Source: Bacteroidales bacterium
GTDB lineage: Bacteria; Bacteroidota; Bacteroidia; Bacteroidales; UBA932
DNA: 5,524 nucleotides
Direction of reading: 5' to 3'
Assembly (NCBI GenBank): GCA_004555145.1
Contig: SFJB01000106.1
Coordinates: forward strand, 1-5,524
Position 1 is the stretch's first letter. Each line of letters opens with the position of its first letter. The position numbers and the translations under genes were made by a program. Under the pieces are notes generated by a model. The model made no database searches. It was not told the origin of the DNA and saw only the letters and a program-made list of their open reading frames with translations. Positions 967 to 5,523 of the stretch are shown in pieces.

Positions 967-1035
967 TGACTTGACTTTATTCCAGGGGCATACATAAAAG
1001 TATTTTATAAAGTGAAACATAAAAAAGAAGTAAAC

Positions 1036-1617
1036 ATGAAGAGACTGGTTTTCTCAGAAGACATCTTCCACACATTGGCGCAAATGGAAGACAAGGAAGC
1101 GGGACAGATGGCAAAGGCTATCGCCTGCTATGCGCACGACGGTACACTGCCGAAATGGAGCAACTCCATACTGATGGCTCTGTTCTCCCTGTTCAGAAAG
1201 CAAATCGACATGCAGACCGACTCGGAAGAGAAAAGGCGCATCGTGAACAAGGAAAACGCAAAGGGGAGGAACAGACAGAAGCAAAGGGCGGCGAAGACGA
1301 TGCAGCCGACAGACCAAGCACCCATGGAAAGCGATTCCGCTGCCATTCCCTATGAAGGCAGCGAACCGCAGCCAGTCGCTACGGAAAGCACGCCCTTTGA
1401 GCGAATGGCGGCAATCTATCCCAAGATTGACTCACTCGACTCCTGCCTGAGGGAATCGCAGGTGCTGTGGGAGTCGCTTGACGAAAGGGCGAGAAAGGAA
1501 GCCATTGGCTATGTCTGCAAGTTAAGGAACAATCCCGATGGAGCGGAAGAACTCGGCTATCTGCGCCAATATCTTACCGCCAGACCATGGGAGAAGCAAT
1601 CCGGCACACATGACTGA
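1036..1617 (+). CDS. DUF6291-like protein, probable replication accessory factor
   Basis: This 193-aa cytoplasmic protein has no signal peptide or membrane segment. Residues 1-60 (MKRLVFSEDIFHTLAQMEDK, then a GTLPKWSNSILMALFSLFRKQID segment) resemble the DUF6291 domain found in Bacteroidota phages and mobile elements. Residues 61-120 are a charged, low-complexity linker rich in K, R, Q, E and P. Residues 121-186 form a second helical domain with W-x-x-L and YLRQYLTARPWE motifs, reminiscent of the C-terminal part of phage replisome organisers; that likeness is my inference. The frame opens at a GTG at 1012, but I chose the ATG at 1036 because family members start MKRLVF and an A-rich AAAAAGAAGTAAAC precedes it. 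It lies 94 bp after the RepA-like ATPase on the same strand, so a helper role in element replication is plausible. The AT-rich spacer could hold its own promoter, but I see no clear TAnnTTTG box. Confidence 0.8.
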   Translation: MKRLVFSEDIFHTLAQMEDKEAGQMAKAIACYAHDGTLPKWSNSILMALFSLFRKQIDMQTDSEEKRRIVNKENAKGRNRQKQRAAKTMQPTDQAPMESDSAAIPYEGSEPQPVATESTPFERMAAIYPKIDSLDSCLRESQVLWESLDERARKEAIGYVCKLRNNPDGAEELGYLRQYLTARPWEKQSGTHD

Positions 1618-1907: not shown

Positions 1908-2342
1908 TCATTTCACCGTCTCCACAAACCTTATCTCCTTCACGCCCCATCCGTTGAGCCGTGGACTGCTGACAAGCACCGTCCCTGCCAGTCTCCAACC
2001 GGACAGCGGGATGTGATGATAGTGAAGACTGCCGCCGTAATGGGGTGGCAGATAGCATGTCTGACATTCATCACCTTTGTACATCCTGACTATCACCTTT
2101 TGCCCAAGGCACATGGCATGGAAGATGGAGTCGGCTTCCTGTACCGACTCCACTCTTACCACACGCACGTCAGGCTGGCGGACAGAGAGGGGCTGACCTA
2201 TCAGCCTGCCGTCCTTGAAGAGAATTTCCCTTATCGCCTCCCTTGGCTCCTGTGCTTTTGGAAGTGGCGCGGAATGCCTGCACCCTGCCATTACCATGGT
2301 CAGAATCCCAACAAGCAGGAATGCCTCACCTATACTTCTCAT
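1908..2342 (-). CDS. small lipoprotein of unknown function
   Basis: The product is a predicted lipoprotein of 144 residues if translation starts at the ATG at 2342 (MRSIGEAF), or 152 residues from the in-frame ATG at 2366. I prefer 2342 because it gives a compact signal peptide: a short n-region with one arginine, a hydrophobic core FLLVGILTMVMAG, and a lipobox MAGC with the lipidated cysteine at residue 21. The residue after this cysteine is arginine, and there is no acidic run of the kind linked to surface export in Bacteroidota, so a periplasm-facing anchor is more likely. The mature part (about 124 residues) is mixed alpha/beta with a CxxC motif (CQTC) in its middle; I do not recognise its family. 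The gene overlaps the 3' end of the muramidase gene by 17 bases (41 from the longer start), so the two are translated from one mRNA and may cooperate at the cell wall. A spanin-like or immunity-like role is possible but unproven. Confidence 0.7.
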   Translation of the reverse strand: MRSIGEAFLLVGILTMVMAGCRHSAPLPKAQEPREAIREILFKDGRLIGQPLSVRQPDVRVVRVESVQEADSIFHAMCLGQKVIVRMYKGDECQTCYLPPHYGGSLHYHHIPLSGWRLAGTVLVSSPRLNGWGVKEIRFVETVK

Positions 2343-3117
2343 AAGCTGCGGCAAGTCTCTTGTCATACTGGTTCTGCGCGTATGACGGTCCGTTGTAATG
2401 GCGTGCGAACTCTTTCCAGTCGAGTGCCCTGAGATACTTGTCCCATTTGTTGCCTTCGATGAACCTCACAAAGAGTTCAAGCTGTTTGCCCTCGCTTTCC
2501 TCCATGGCGGCGACAAACTCTCCCACGCTCCTGCATCCGCACACCGCATGATTGAAGCCCATTATCTGGGCCAGTCCCCAGCTTGCCGACGAGTCTGCCG
2601 CCTCGCGGTGGATGGCTCTCGCCCGCTCCAGACGGTCATATTCCTTCATGCCTCCCTTGTAGTGCTCCTTCGTCCATTTCTGATAGAGTATGTCCTCGTT
2701 GCCCTTCTGCCACCTTGCCGGGTCTATGCCATGCTGCGACAGCTGCTTCCAGAAGACATGTCCCTCAAACAATATTGTGGGCTTGCCCTGGGCGAGGAAT
2801 CCGCCCTTGTTGCCCGTCTCCACTTCAAGCACAGCCCTTATGGCTGCCGTTTCCACCCCGAGCATCTCTGCCGCATGGGCATAGTCGGCGGCTGTCAGTC
2901 TCCACGGGGCTTCACCGCCGCCTGTCAGCAGTTCCCATGTGCGCTGTCCCACGATGCCGTCGGCTGCGATGCCGCCTTTCTCCTGTTCCCTGCACACTGC
3001 ATCTTCGGTCGCCTTGCCGAAGATGCCGTCAGCCTCTATCTCGTAGCCACGCTCCATGAGCAGCGACTGCAACTGTTCCACATCCTTGCCGGATGATCCT
3101 TTCTTCAATGTCTGCAT
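2326..3117 (-). CDS. N-acetylmuramidase with N-terminal peptidoglycan-binding domain
   Basis: This 263-aa enzyme probably cleaves the glycan strand of peptidoglycan. Residues 3-64 form a PG_binding_1 domain: LKKGSSGKDVEQLQSLL, then DGIFGKATEDAV and DGIVGQRTWELL. Residues 72-262 match the DUF3380/N-acetylmuramidase family (PF11860): LEVETG (97-102), ILFEGHVFWKQL (115-126), SWGLAQIMGFNH (179-190) and HYNGPSYAQNQYDKRLAAAY (240-259). By comparison with phage endolysins of this family, the glutamate of the VET motif (E100) is the likely catalytic acid. Length fits a two-domain endolysin. There is no signal peptide or membrane segment, so the enzyme needs another route to the wall, such as lysis, a holin or a secretion device; none is seen nearby. 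The start at 3117 lies two bases after the stop of the upstream gene, and the lipoprotein gene overlaps its 3' end. It could be a prophage endolysin, a bacteriocin-like effector or part of an injection apparatus. Confidence 0.9.
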   Translation of the reverse strand: MQTLKKGSSGKDVEQLQSLLMERGYEIEADGIFGKATEDAVCREQEKGGIAADGIVGQRTWELLTGGGEAPWRLTAADYAHAAEMLGVETAAIRAVLEVETGNKGGFLAQGKPTILFEGHVFWKQLSQHGIDPARWQKGNEDILYQKWTKEHYKGGMKEYDRLERARAIHREAADSSASWGLAQIMGFNHAVCGCRSVGEFVAAMEESEGKQLELFVRFIEGNKWDKYLRALDWKEFARHYNGPSYAQNQYDKRLAAAYEKYR

Positions 3118-3119
3118 AG

Positions 3120-3626
3120 TTATTCTTTCTTTGTTGATGATTGTATGGTTCCTGCCTGCCCTTCCACAAACAGCACCCTGATGATTTCCCTGCTGCCGTC
3201 TCTGACGCGAATCACCCCGTCAGCCTTAATGCGTCTGCTGTTGTCTGTCAGTTCAGCGATGCAGCCGTCTGCAAGCGGCAGGGTAAAGGTTATGATGCCT
3301 GCCCTTACCCTGTTTTGCATTCTTTCGTGGCTGACATGGGGAAGGCTTAGCAGGAAGTGGTAGGCATAGATGAAGTCTGTCTGAAATATCCTCCACTCTT
3401 CCTTCCCGGGATTCCGTCTCGTCTTCTTGCCGTCATCTTTTTCCGCCGTCTCTATCTGTCGGAGGATATCGTTGACGATAGTTACTGAGTCGGGCAGAGC
3501 CTCTGGGGACTTTTGTTCTTCTTCCGGCTTCGGTTCGGGTGTCCCACTCTCTGTTTCTCTGTCGCTCCTTTTCGGCAAAAGCCATCTGCGCAGCGTCTGG
3601 AGGATTGACCTCAGTGTTGCCCTCAT
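3120..3626 (-). CDS. 168-aa protein of unknown function
   Basis: I do not recognise this protein. Residues 1-20 form a strongly basic amphipathic helix (RATLRSILQTLRRWLLPKR) that could touch a membrane or nucleic acid but is too polar for a signal peptide. Residues 21-45 are an acidic, proline-rich linker (PEPKPEEEQKSPEALP). From about residue 46 there is a folded region with helices to about 106 (containing FQTDFIYAYHFLLSLP) and then several beta strands (GIITFTLPLADGCIAEL, GVIRVRDG, EIIRVLFVEG). The tail is short and charged. It starts one base after the stop of the zinc-ribbon gene and ends two bases before the muramidase start, with no ribosome binding site of its own that I can see, so translation is probably coupled. 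Position in the operon suggests a role with the muramidase, for example as an adaptor or regulator; this is inference only. Confidence 0.75.
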   Translation of the reverse strand: MRATLRSILQTLRRWLLPKRSDRETESGTPEPKPEEEQKSPEALPDSVTIVNDILRQIETAEKDDGKKTRRNPGKEEWRIFQTDFIYAYHFLLSLPHVSHERMQNRVRAGIITFTLPLADGCIAELTDNSRRIKADGVIRVRDGSREIIRVLFVEGQAGTIQSSTKKE

Positions 3627-3627
3627 G

Positions 3628-3867
3628 TCAGTATCTGCCGTTGAACTTGCTCGTCTTCTCCACTCTCCGCTGGGCTGCCTCCACCTTGGCGAGTGCCTGC
3701 ATGGCTTTCATGCTCTTCGCCCTGTCGATGGAAAGGCGCAGTCCGCAGTGCGGGCAGCAGAGGCTGCTCGACACCAGCAGTTCCGTCACCGTGGTGGGGA
3801 TGAACTGTCCACATTGGGGGCAAGGCATTCCGGGTGTCTGTCCCTGTCTCTGGTTATTGCCCATCAT
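3628..3867 (-). CDS. small zinc-ribbon protein
   Basis: The product is 79 residues, or 78 from the second ATG (3864). Two knuckles, CPQC (residues 16-19) and CPHC (38-41), each followed by glycine, are spaced as in a zinc ribbon binding one zinc ion with four cysteines. The C-terminal half (about 45-72) is a charged helix rich in alanine, lysine and glutamine, possibly a coiled coil. There is no signal peptide, so it should stay in the cytoplasm. Its first 14 bases overlap the end of the DUF2589 gene. A strong Shine-Dalgarno sequence sits inside that upstream gene; spacing from GGAGG is three bases to the first ATG and six to the second, so the second may be the real start. Such small ribbons commonly mediate protein-protein contact or nucleic-acid binding; here the partner is probably another operon product. 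I cannot name the family. Confidence 0.8.
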   Translation of the reverse strand: MMGNNQRQGQTPGMPCPQCGQFIPTTVTELLVSSSLCCPHCGLRLSIDRAKSMKAMQALAKVEAAQRRVEKTSKFNGRY

Positions 3868-4474
3868 TCACCTCCTTTCCCTCCGTTTCGTCAACCGATT
3901 CGCTCTGCACGTTGCTCGTGGTGAGGTGCAGCAGGTTAGAGAGACCTCCTGGCATGTCGGCCTGCTGCATCCTTACCTTCACTTTCATGTTGGCGGTGAG
4001 CGACTTGCGAACGCCTTCCGTCGTCTTGCCTTCGCGGCTGGCTTGCGCCATCGACACGCGGAGCTTTACTCCTTCCGTACTTTCTTCCTCTTCAGGCGAC
4101 GAGCCGTTCTTTAGCGAGAAGGCGGCATCCTTGTCTGCGCTCAGAGCGTCAACAATCTGTATGTCGAAATCAAAGTCAGCCTCTTTCACCTGGAGCAGGG
4201 GAAGGGGAACGAGGGTGAGCAGCGGTATGCTGATGCGCTGTGTATGCGGACCGCCCACGTCCTGTGTCTGGTAGGTGAAGTCGAGCGTGCGCATCTTGCC
4301 TGCCTTTCCGGTCTTGCGGTCGTATGACTCGAAGGTCAGGTCGAGCAGGTAATTCAGGTATCGCCGTGAGGATATGGAGTCAGCGTCGATGGTGGCTACC
4401 AGCGGGCCCGATATCAGGTCTTTTAGCTCCATTACCTGGCTGCTGACGTGTTTCTTGTCTTTGTCTGTCTGCAT
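3854..4474 (-). CDS. DUF2589 domain protein
   Basis: This 206-aa protein matches my memory of the DUF2589 family (PF11655), whose function is unknown to me. Seen: ELKDLISGPLVATIDADSIS (residues 16-35), followed by RRYLNYLLDLTFE (38-49); IPLLTLVPLPLLQVKEADFD (83-102), running into strand FDIQIV (103-108); and, after an acidic low-complexity loop (about 123-137), a terminal block ANMKVKVRMQQADMPGGLSN (161-180), ending LLHLTTSNV. The conserved blocks alternate a helical N-terminus with long amphipathic beta strands. There is no signal peptide or membrane helix, so it is probably cytoplasmic or part of an assembled particle. It starts 42 bp after the 259-aa gene and overlaps the zinc-ribbon gene by 14 bases. 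The region around MQTDKDKK has no obvious ribosome binding site. DUF2589 assignment is fairly sure; any role in envelope attack or particle assembly is inference from the muramidase downstream. Confidence 0.8.
   Translation of the reverse strand: MQTDKDKKHVSSQVMELKDLISGPLVATIDADSISSRRYLNYLLDLTFESYDRKTGKAGKMRTLDFTYQTQDVGGPHTQRISIPLLTLVPLPLLQVKEADFDFDIQIVDALSADKDAAFSLKNGSSPEEEESTEGVKLRVSMAQASREGKTTEGVRKSLTANMKVKVRMQQADMPGGLSNLLHLTTSNVQSESVDETEGKEVNDGQ
3868..3878 (-). promoter_or_regulatory. strong ribosome binding site for the zinc-ribbon gene
   Basis: Read on the minus strand the bases are AAAGGAGGTGA, a near-perfect complement of the 16S rRNA 3' end. They lie within the last codons of the DUF2589 gene. 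Strong Shine-Dalgarno sequences are uncommon in Bacteroidota, and the spacing favours the second of two adjacent ATG codons (3864). Confidence 0.6.
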
Positions 4475-4516
4475 AGTATGTTGTCATTATAGGTGGATAC
4501 TGCAATGAATGGTGTG

Positions 4517-5296
4517 CTACATGTCATCCGTGAACAGGCGGATGTTGTCGGGAGAGATACGGAACTTGATGCTGTGGACGCACTCGTCGGGCAGGGCTGA
4601 CAGCTCCTGCGAGTTCACTGTGACATCCACCGACGGCATCAGACGCTTGCGCTTGATGTTCACGTCCTTCAGTATCTTGGGCATCATGTCCCTCACTGAT
4701 GATTCAAGTTCCGTCTGCGCCTTCTCCCTCACAGCCCCGCCTCCCGTCATGTCGAGCAGCGACAGGAGTTCCTCGTGGCGGAGTATCTCCTCTTCACAGG
4801 TGGCGAGAGTGCAGTGTGTCAGTACCTGCTCGTTCACGGTGCCGTCCTCGTTGATGAGTCGGGTGAAGGCCTGCTGCATTGACTTCAGAATCTTACGGCC
4901 AAGGTAAGCACAGAATTTGTTTTGTGTCGCCATGTCGCCAACCAGCCTGCGCATGCCTTCGGTTTCCTCTGAAGTGTCTGTGGCAAAGGCCGACTGCAGC
5001 ACGGGCAGCACGCTGCCCAAAGCGGTTCGGGCAAGCTTGCGGCTCACTTCCACCGACAACTGCCTGAGCATGGGATAGTTTATCTCATACTGTTCTGTTT
5101 TTGCCGAGTCGTCGGTCACTCCATAGCGAAGCTCCATCTCCACCTCGCCGATGTTGGCTGAGGGCAGGGAGAAGCGCTCCAGACGGCCGTTCTTCTTGTA
5201 GATTTCCTCCAGGGAGACGGCATACATGTTCGCCTCGTGCTGCGCCACTATCATGTCGCGGAGGATGGAACTGATAATCGTACTTAACTGAGCCAT
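4517..5296 (-). CDS. 259-aa protein, possibly a distant DUF2589 relative
   Basis: I do not recognise a named family. The N-terminal helix region STIISSILRDMIVAQHEANM (residues 5-24), then YAVSLEEIYKKNGRL, is followed by RFSLPSANIGEVEMELRYGV (41-60). This order (helix, proline, then a strand with alternating acidic and hydrophobic residues) resembles the DUF2589 protein encoded next, so the two may share a fold. Residues 68-215 are mostly helical, with many charged residues and no membrane segment. The last 45 residues return to beta structure (PSVDVTVNSQEL, HSIKFRISPDNIRLF). No signal peptide is present. The start at ATG 5296 is supported by AGAGGA (5302-5307) five bases upstream on the minus strand. 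It lies 23 bp after the stop of the preceding gene and 42 bp before the DUF2589 gene, so it is part of the same operon. It may form a hetero-complex with the DUF2589 protein. Confidence 0.75.
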   Translation of the reverse strand: MAQLSTIISSILRDMIVAQHEANMYAVSLEEIYKKNGRLERFSLPSANIGEVEMELRYGVTDDSAKTEQYEINYPMLRQLSVEVSRKLARTALGSVLPVLQSAFATDTSEETEGMRRLVGDMATQNKFCAYLGRKILKSMQQAFTRLINEDGTVNEQVLTHCTLATCEEEILRHEELLSLLDMTGGGAVREKAQTELESSVRDMMPKILKDVNIKRKRLMPSVDVTVNSQELSALPDECVHSIKFRISPDNIRLFTDDM

Positions 5297-5319
5297 AAGA
5301 TTCCTCTGTCTTTAGTGTG

Positions 5320-5523
5320 TTACTTCTCAGCCGTCTTTGCCGATGGGGCTTCGGCTGACACGTTCACGGTCAGCGTCTTGCCGCCTGCCTTCAATGTGTA
5401 CTTGTTGGCACTGGTGAAGTCAATGATCACGCTGTTGTCACTCACGGTTGACGATGCACCGCCATCTACACTGATGGCCTTTGGCTCAAAGATGCCCTTG
5501 CTGTTCTTGTAGGTGGCTATGAG
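5320..5523 (-). CDS. C-terminal end of an unidentified operon gene
   Basis: An open frame enters from beyond the right edge and ends at the TAA complementary to 5320-5322, giving 67 visible residues. The sequence is rich in S, T, V, A and K with likely beta strands (GIFEPKAISVDG, SVIIDFTSANKYTL, GKTLTVNVSAEA) and ends in a charged tail SAKTAEK. It has no cysteine and no hydrophobic helix. The composition suggests a beta-sandwich or another strand-rich particle-type protein, but too little is visible to name it. Codon quality and the short 23-bp gap to the next gene support it as a real, co-transcribed gene. Confidence 0.6.
   Translation of the reverse strand, partial: LIATYKNSKGIFEPKAISVDGGASSTVSDNSVIIDFTSANKYTLKAGGKTLTVNVSAEAPSAKTAEK

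What the first reader, a model, noticed from the sequence alone, without database searches (positions are those of the whole stretch)
1908..5523. Compact operon linking DUF2589-type proteins, a zinc ribbon, a leaderless muramidase and a lipoprotein
Seen: seven minus-strand genes with junctions of 23 bp, 42 bp, a 14-base overlap, 1 bp, 2 bp and a 17-base or longer overlap. Known: PF11860 enzymes cut peptidoglycan; DUF2589 has no established function that I know of. Inferred: the genes form one machine acting on the cell envelope, such as a lysis, injection or competition system carried on a mobile element. No holin, phage structural gene or secretion ATPase is visible to place it in a known class.
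Basis: partly seen in the sequence, partly recalled or inferred. Interest (0 to 1): 0.75.

Follow-up and report, generated by a model that had tools for sequence, protein, structure and literature searches.

The report
Conserved DUF2589 cassette with phage-type muramidase
Gut Bacteroidales carry a compact, conserved gene cassette, not found described in the papers searched, in which proteins of unknown function travel with a phage-type enzyme that cuts the bacterial cell wall; some related loci in other bacteria carry unrelated wall-cutting enzymes, which points to a dedicated but unproven way of acting on the cell envelope.

Summary
In detail: seven minus-strand genes with the listed junctions. 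A LytTR regulator and one more gene stand ahead of the long DUF2589 gene outside the window. It is a conserved unit: in 23 distinct loci the short DUF2589 gene follows p259 in 23, the long one stands ahead in 21, the zinc ribbon follows in 22, a PF11860 muramidase in 19. In 201 family genomes, 8 of 13 PF11860 genes lie in such cassettes. The window's integrase-side genes mostly do not travel with it. Some DUF2589 loci elsewhere carry other wall enzymes: CHAP, Phage_lysozyme, M15, PF11860. TssC was not found in 9 of 10 cassette genomes, nor a Pfam contractile sheath in any; no plain holin is visible; the only PADLOC match is a weak zinc-ribbon one. Best reading, modest confidence: a LytTR-switched module whose DUF2589/p259 proteins, with a possible membrane-docking partner, bring a leaderless muramidase to the wall, probably the cell's own. 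Conservation is shown; route, target and purpose are inferred. DUF2589 occurs in one paper of the searchable library, in passing.

The parts
5320..5523 (-). C-terminal end of the long DUF2589 gene (DUFL, 282 aa when read whole in G000:C29:64276-65124)
   Evidence: whole gene PF11655 97.4 bits
4517..5296 (-). p259, conserved second core protein; model with N-terminal helix, long strands and an inserted helical part; no Pfam family
   Evidence: relatives beside DUF2589 in distant Bacteroidota
3854..4474 (-). short DUF2589 protein (DUFs, 206 aa)
   Evidence: PF11655 67.6 bits; related to DUFL by profiles
3628..3867 (-). 79-aa zinc-ribbon-like protein (two CxxC pairs; Pfam match below cut-off)
   Evidence: present in 22 of 23 cassettes
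3120..3626 (-). p168, variable-slot protein with a basic N-terminus, possible membrane docking
2326..3117 (-). leaderless N-acetylmuramidase (PG_binding_1 + PF11860), phage-endolysin type
1908..2366 (-). small lipoprotein (152 aa; start may be 2342), overlaps the muramidase gene
   Evidence: relatives in L062 and L116
3..941 (+). flanking AAA_25 gene of an integrase-bearing element (cut by the window edge); not part of the cassette
1027..1617 (+). flanking DUF6291 gene beside it; not part of the cassette

Best explanation
A regulated envelope-attack (lysis-like) cassette. The LytTR protein switches on the operon. DUFL, p259 and DUFs, small proteins that start with a helix followed by long strands, assemble with the zinc ribbon in the cytoplasm or at the inner membrane. 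The variable-slot protein (p168 with its basic N-terminus, or a lipoprotein) docks the assembly to the membrane. Together they give a leaderless phage-type muramidase access to the peptidoglycan, so that the wall is cut when the system fires. I think the target is the producing cell, i.e. programmed lysis or suicide, because in most loci I recognised no immunity candidate and in none a secretion machine. Shown: gene set, order, intact leaderless enzyme, repeated pairing of DUF2589 with wall enzymes, regulator gene. Suggestive: repeats ahead of the operon. Inferred: assembly, membrane crossing, self-targeting, purpose.
For: Same gene order in 23 loci, muramidase in 19 of 23. PF11860: 13 genes in 201 family genomes, 8 beside DUF2589; 9 genomes hold both against 13 with DUF2589 and 11 with PF11860 (P 3e-11). 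In 39 DUF2589 genomes PG_binding_1 lies within 5 kb in 10 of 42 (expected 0.16), CHAP in 2 of 20 and M15_4 in 2 of 16. Phage_lysozyme in a Burkholderia stagnalis locus and PF11860 in a deltaproteobacterial plasmid locus. The three enzymes scanned beside other DUF2589 genes (M15 in L126, CHAP in L082, Phage_lysozyme in L118) match PHROG endolysin or tail-lysozyme families, as does the window's own. E100 and its surroundings are invariant in the 16 longer muramidase copies compared. Direct repeats ahead of the first gene: z 5.2 at lag 20 over 16 loci, and perfect at lag 21 in the window's genome. In 11 of 15 p168-type rows the N-terminus is the most amphipathic part of the protein; charge 0 to +7.
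Against: No protein has a plain holin-like membrane segment; the strong hydrophobic stretches are the lipoprotein signal (1.86) and the DUF2589 motif (1.80). 4 of 23 cassettes lack the muramidase (one of them on a contig that ends soon after), and others are cut or eroded. In the phylum sample only the window genome's copy of 26 PF11860 matches lies beside DUF2589, and by eye many distant DUF2589 loci have no wall enzyme in the flanks read. M15 lies beside DUF2589 in 2 of 4 genomes of that genus. In the window's own p168 the N-terminus is not the most amphipathic part (0.57 against 0.59). Other repeat lags are raised too (24: z 3.8; 16: z 2.9), the shuffles are simple ones and the loci are related. 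The DUF2589 model is unusable; p259 has no convincing fold match.
Confidence: 0.4

Rival explanations
1. Antibacterial weapon: the muramidase is an effector delivered to neighbours, the DUF2589 proteins are its carrier, and the lipoprotein is the periplasmic immunity protein.
For: Leaderless wall enzyme overlapping a lipoprotein gene, an arrangement recalled from T6SS lysozyme effectors; an exported or lipoprotein-type neighbour in 7 of 23 cassettes by eye; a weak Scabin-like (recalled as ADP-ribosyltransferase) match, below cut-off, just ahead of DUFL in Segatella copri.
Against: No such neighbour recognised in the other 16, though a few of their contigs end at the muramidase (L105, L109); TssC in 1 of 10 and Pfam sheath in 0 of 10 cassette genomes; no secretion ATPase recognised in the locus.
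Confidence: 0.22
2. Anti-phage or stress sensor with a suicide effector: the DUF2589 proteins sense infection and release a lytic enzyme (abortive infection).
For: Different effector-type genes beside DUF2589: wall enzymes, an S8 protease (L073), and a patatin that matches PADLOC effector models; patchy presence, 13 of 201 family genomes.
Against: No PADLOC match for the window's cassette proteins except a weak zinc-ribbon one (17.5 bits); patatin and S8 pairings come from few related genomes; no support for a Trypco2 link.
Confidence: 0.15
3. Wall remodelling helper: the enzyme opens peptidoglycan locally for a surface structure or DNA transfer.
For: Some copies beside element-type genes (integrase here; topoisomerase in L062; DUF5712 in L115).
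Against: The enzyme is leaderless while wall helpers of transfer systems are usually exported (recalled); no transfer genes recognised by eye around most copies, few of whose neighbours were scanned.
Confidence: 0.13
4. Leftover of a prophage lysis module, with DUF2589 a passenger.
For: One IMG/VR contig has DUF2589, patatin and M15 beside tail sheath, tail protein and tape-measure genes (L126); another holds an interrupted cassette (L127); the enzymes are phage-like.
Against: Gene order conserved across Bacteroidales genera without recognised tail genes; one unverified 4-kb record among 50,697 phage records. The IMG/VR scans with p259 and DUFs confirmed nothing, but they also missed L127, which carries both, so they are weak evidence.
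Confidence: 0.05

Closest known systems
Phage holin-endolysin lysis cassette
   Same: Leaderless phage-type peptidoglycan hydrolase in a tight operon; the muramidase matches a PHROG family described as endolysin over its whole length.
   Different: No holin, spanin or phage structural gene recognised; LytTR regulator; no counterpart known to me of the DUF2589/p259/zinc-ribbon core.
T6SS lysozyme effector-immunity pairs (recalled)
   Same: Leaderless wall enzyme next to a lipoprotein.
   Different: Exported or lipoprotein-type neighbour in 7 of 23 loci only; TssC not found in 9 of 10 cassette genomes.
Type 10 (holin/endolysin-dependent) secretion (recalled)
   Same: Bacterial, not phage, use of a lysis-type enzyme under its own regulator.
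   Different: No holin and no secreted cargo gene recognised.
Conflict systems with interchangeable effectors (PMC7159879, passages seen)
   Same: Small adaptor-type proteins with swappable effectors; a lysozyme-type effector domain is among those described there.
   Different: No NTPase, EAD or Trypco domain among the Pfam matches of the cassette.

Membership tests
PF11655 DUF2589 | Score over Pfam's curated cut-off | tested here: met
   DUFs 67.6 bits, DUFL 97.4 bits, cut-off 23
PF11860 N-acetylmuramidase | Full-length domain with conserved core residues | tested here: met
   234.7 bits, profile 1-174 of 175; E100 and neighbours invariant in the 16 longer of 19 copies
PF11860 N-acetylmuramidase | Enzyme activity on peptidoglycan | not testable with these tools
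   needs a zymogram or lysis assay
Phage holin-endolysin lysis cassette | Endolysin-type wall hydrolase | tested here: met
   phrog_1224, described as endolysin, 2.8e-98
Phage holin-endolysin lysis cassette | Small membrane-spanning holin in the cassette | tested here: not met
   hydropathy of nine cassette proteins: only the lipoprotein signal (1.86) and the DUFL motif (1.80) stand out
Phage holin-endolysin lysis cassette | Located in phage genomes | tested here: inconclusive
   no confirmed relative, which however missed L127; one IMG/VR locus each (L126, distant relative beside tail genes; L127, interrupted cassette); one unverified phage record
T6SS effector-immunity pair | T6SS present in the genome | tested here: not met
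   TssC (PF17541) in 1 of 10 cassette genomes, not in the window's own
Extracellular contractile injection system or tailocin cargo | Contractile sheath in the genome | tested here: not met
   PF04984 in 0 of 10 cassette genomes; a diverged sheath could be missed
Known anti-phage defence system | Match to a PADLOC family | tested here: not met
   none for nine cassette proteins except a 17.5-bit zinc-ribbon match
LytTR-controlled operon | LytTR gene in the locus | tested here: met
   PF04397 39.8 bits, cut-off 22.6; LytTR in 16 of 23 loci by count
LytTR-controlled operon | Paired direct repeats about 21 bp apart ahead of the operon (rule recalled) | tested here: inconclusive
   z 5.2 at lag 20 over 16 loci, perfect at lag 21 in the window's genome, but other lags also raised and loci related
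Trypco2 adaptor | Sequence match | tested here: inconclusive
   one of 23 DUF2589 proteins at E 0.2; not among the 25 of 36 families shown for 30 p259/S-type proteins; profile comparison not significant, with only 3 Trypco2 sequences
Aerolysin/ETX_MTX2-type beta-pore protein | Sequence or fold match | tested here: inconclusive
   alternating beta pattern in 24 DUF2589 proteins scored (z 2.1-5.6 against shuffles only); single PDB profile hit 7ml9 at E 0.5 (its kinship to this class is recalled); no such Pfam family among the matches; no usable model

The most novel reading that the evidence does not exclude
DUF2589 marks a class of modular envelope-attack systems, found in several phyla and not described in the papers searched. 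Two or three DUF2589/p259-type proteins, whose Ser/Thr-rich alternating strands resemble the membrane-entering hairpin of beta-pore proteins, take the place of a holin: they open or deform the inner membrane for whichever leaderless phage-type wall enzyme (PF11860, Phage_lysozyme, CHAP, M15) the locus has taken up, under a LytTR, LuxR or response-regulator switch.
Probability: 0.2. Interest if true: 0.85.

Novelty: new variant of a known kind. Interest (0 to 1): 0.6.

Why it matters
A conserved cassette in gut genera such as Segatella, Prevotella and Bacteroides pairs proteins of unknown function with a wall-cutting enzyme. If it lyses the producer it would be a bacterial lysis programme without a recognised holin, relevant to release of cell contents or to phage defence; if it kills neighbours, a new competition system. 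Either way it gives PF11655, which has one passing mention in the papers searched, a concrete testable role.

Tried and rejected

Homology between p259 and DUF2589: not significant with close relatives; weak with diverse ones (probability 11%). I treat the shared helix-plus-strand plan as suggestive only. DUFL-type and DUFs-type proteins are clearly related (99.7%).

Trypco2: I recalled a likeness to p259; the tests gave no support. Beta-pore idea: pattern only. In one search, 24 of the 60 DUFL-type sequences were scored; the rest were duplicates or failed the script's motif and length filters, and no other beta-rich proteins were run as a control.

Mobile element: no tRNA within L002 or L003 and no repeat that could mark element ends in L002:3000-15044 (one 18-base pair, inside the left flank). 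M15 and patatin beside DUF2589 (L074, L079, L126) come from one genus or likely kin and are weak evidence: in two other genomes of that genus M15 lies elsewhere. The statistics use rounded genome sizes and treat related loci as independent. In one search, doubles of the same genome (L099, L104, L107, L111, L114) and L115 (cassette cut at the contig end) were dropped, but near relatives remain (L102/L103, L067/L108/L109, L100/L101).

Negative IMG/VR scans rest on short peptide patterns and missed L127, so they prove little.

Literature: PF11655 in 0 papers; the searches were seen as listings only and no title there pointed to this cassette.
Full report
WHAT IS THERE. The rest of the operon lies outside the window: the long DUF2589 gene read whole (282 aa), p241 six bases ahead of it, and a LytTR regulator. 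To the left, on the other strand, stand HTH, tyrosine integrase, AAA_25 and DUF6291 genes.

A CONSERVED UNIT. PF11655 occurs in 13 of 201 genomes of the family and 28 of 395 of the phylum. The neighbourhoods fetched named loci found with p259 (Segatella copri, Bacteroides caecigallinarum, Prevotella, Dysgonomonas, Alistipes and others) gave 23 distinct cassettes. The short DUF2589 gene follows p259 in 23 of 23; the long one stands ahead in 21 (one contig starts at p259, one locus is eroded); the zinc ribbon follows in 22; the muramidase in 19, two of them fragments and one cut by the contig end. It is missing in L061, L064, L112 and L113, of which L112's contig ends about 1.3 kb after the last cassette gene. 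Counted, a LytTR gene lies in the locus in 16 of 23, ahead of the long DUF2589 gene in 14. Between zinc ribbon and muramidase there is usually one more gene, which varies: a p168 relative or a protein of similar build, or a lipoprotein. The p168-type proteins have basic N-termini (net charge 0 to +7); in 11 of 15 rows (two of them doubles) the N-terminus is also the most amphipathic part, but not in the window's own copy. Of the window's integrase-side genes, one search found only an AAA_25 relative about 5 kb from the cassette in L064 and an integrase relative beside the distant DUF2589 locus L085.

LINK TO WALL ENZYMES. In the 201 family genomes there are 13 PF11860 genes in 11 genomes; 8 of the 13 lie in DUF2589 cassettes. 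In 395 phylum genomes, by contrast, 26 PF11860 matches in 24 genomes include only the window genome's own copy beside DUF2589. There, some loci have other partners: a CHAP enzyme (L082, and by sequence L083), proteins with PG_binding_1 (L077, L092), M15 with patatin (L074, and by sequence L079), an S8 protease (L073, and by sequence L075, L087). Across 39 DUF2589 genomes, PG_binding_1, CHAP and M15_4 matches lie within 5 kb of DUF2589 in 10 of 42, 2 of 20 and 2 of 16, with 0.16, 0.07 and 0.06 expected; outside the family it is 2 of 30, 2 of 16 and 2 of 11. By eye, many distant DUF2589 loci show no such gene in the flanks read; few of their neighbours were scanned. Outside the phylum, Burkholderia stagnalis has DUF2589, a second protein of similar pattern and a Phage_lysozyme (recalled as GH24) gene in a row, with a LuxR-type gene facing away; a deltaproteobacterial plasmid has DUF2589 and a leaderless PF11860 enzyme about 2 kb apart on one strand. 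The two Vibrio plasmid loci each have two DUF2589-type genes; the Vibrio tubiashii neighbour annotated as peptidoglycan-binding had no Pfam match.

THE CORE PROTEINS. DUFL and DUFs are related (hhalign 99.7%); p259 to DUF2589 only weakly (11%). p259 belongs to a family that also follows DUF2589 in distant Bacteroidota. DUF2589 has an N-terminal helix-like motif (IGGPL-A-I-AQ), a hydrophobic motif (VP-LT--PIP-IRI-E--IDF) and a Ser/Thr-rich alternating stretch. No significant PDB relative was found, and no fold could be modelled for it.

REGULATION. The region ahead of the first gene after LytTR (or ahead of the long DUF2589 gene) shows direct repeats at a 20-bp lag, z 5.2 over 16 loci; lags 24 (3.8), 16 (2.9), 21 (2.5) and 14 (2.4) are raised too, and related loci inflate all of these. 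In the window's genome an 11-bp repeat is perfect at 21 bp. An exact TAnnTTTG box, the recalled Bacteroides -7 element, occurs in 9 of 14 regions printed. LytTR proteins are recalled to bind paired repeats of about this spacing. Other DUF2589 loci have a LytTR response regulator (L084), an OmpR-type one (L091) or a LuxR-type gene (L118) nearby.

WHAT IT IS NOT. TssC is in 1 of 10 cassette genomes and PF04984 sheath in none. The cassette proteins have one weak PADLOC match, the zinc ribbon. Profile scans of IMG/VR with p259 and DUFs confirmed no relative, but they missed L127, which holds both; two DUF2589 queries found one contig each: L127, a cassette whose short DUF2589 gene breaks off just ahead of an integrase and an antirepressor gene, and L126, where DUF2589, patatin and M15 stand beside tail genes. 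The one phage-collection hit is an unverified 4-kb faecal clone that holds the six genes from long DUF2589 to muramidase.

READING. The repeated pairing with unrelated phage-type wall enzymes suggests that DUF2589 systems, or a large part of them, act on the envelope and that the core, not the enzyme, defines them. Because no secretion machine was recognised and most loci show no immunity candidate, I favour self-directed lysis or suicide (0.4) over delivery to neighbours (0.22), a defence sensor (0.15) or wall remodelling (0.13). None of these functions has been shown.

LITERATURE. DUF2589 appears in one paper of the searchable library; the passage seen reports DUF2589-related genes AF0414-AF0417 of Archaeoglobus fulgidus as up-regulated on lactate (PMC3949148). 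PF11655 appears in none. Most papers of subscription journals are not in that library. In PMC7159879 (passages) a lysozyme-type effector domain is described in other conflict systems; PMC10907252 was seen only in its Trypco passages.

Noticed in passing
window 2542-2653: The window differs from the genome it is assigned to at 24 of 5524 bases; 12 of them fall in 112 bases of the muramidase gene and change one residue in all, which suggests local recombination between strains.
   Followed up: partly
L127:2956-4956: A cassette in IMG/VR whose short DUF2589 gene breaks off just ahead of an integrase and an antirepressor gene: an element seems to have inserted at the 3' part of the gene.
   Followed up: partly
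L126:1-8591: DUF2589, patatin and M15 endolysin beside tail sheath, tail protein and tape-measure genes on an IMG/VR contig; the rest of the contig was not read.
   Followed up: partly
L098:8544-9122: Segatella copri gene 2 bp ahead of DUFL with a weak Scabin-like match, below Pfam's cut-off; the slot ahead of DUFL differs between loci.
   Followed up: partly
L060:12820-14049, L062:15928-17067, L069:4167-5405, L116:7074-8252: Proteins of 379-412 aa with AraC-type HTH matches (over Pfam's cut-off only in L069) and N-terminal stretches that look hydrophobic by eye stand near several cassettes; may be a second regulator.
   Followed up: no
L120 (MT839761.1): A record filed as an unverified bacteriophage clone holds six cassette genes and nothing else recognised: probably mislabelled bacterial DNA.
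   Followed up: yes
L117:6915-7178, L121:6911-7186, L122:6821-7096: A conserved 87-91 aa protein with a shared C-terminal GF-RKP motif follows the DUF2589 gene in deltaproteobacterial and Vibrio loci; no family was searched for it.
   Followed up: no
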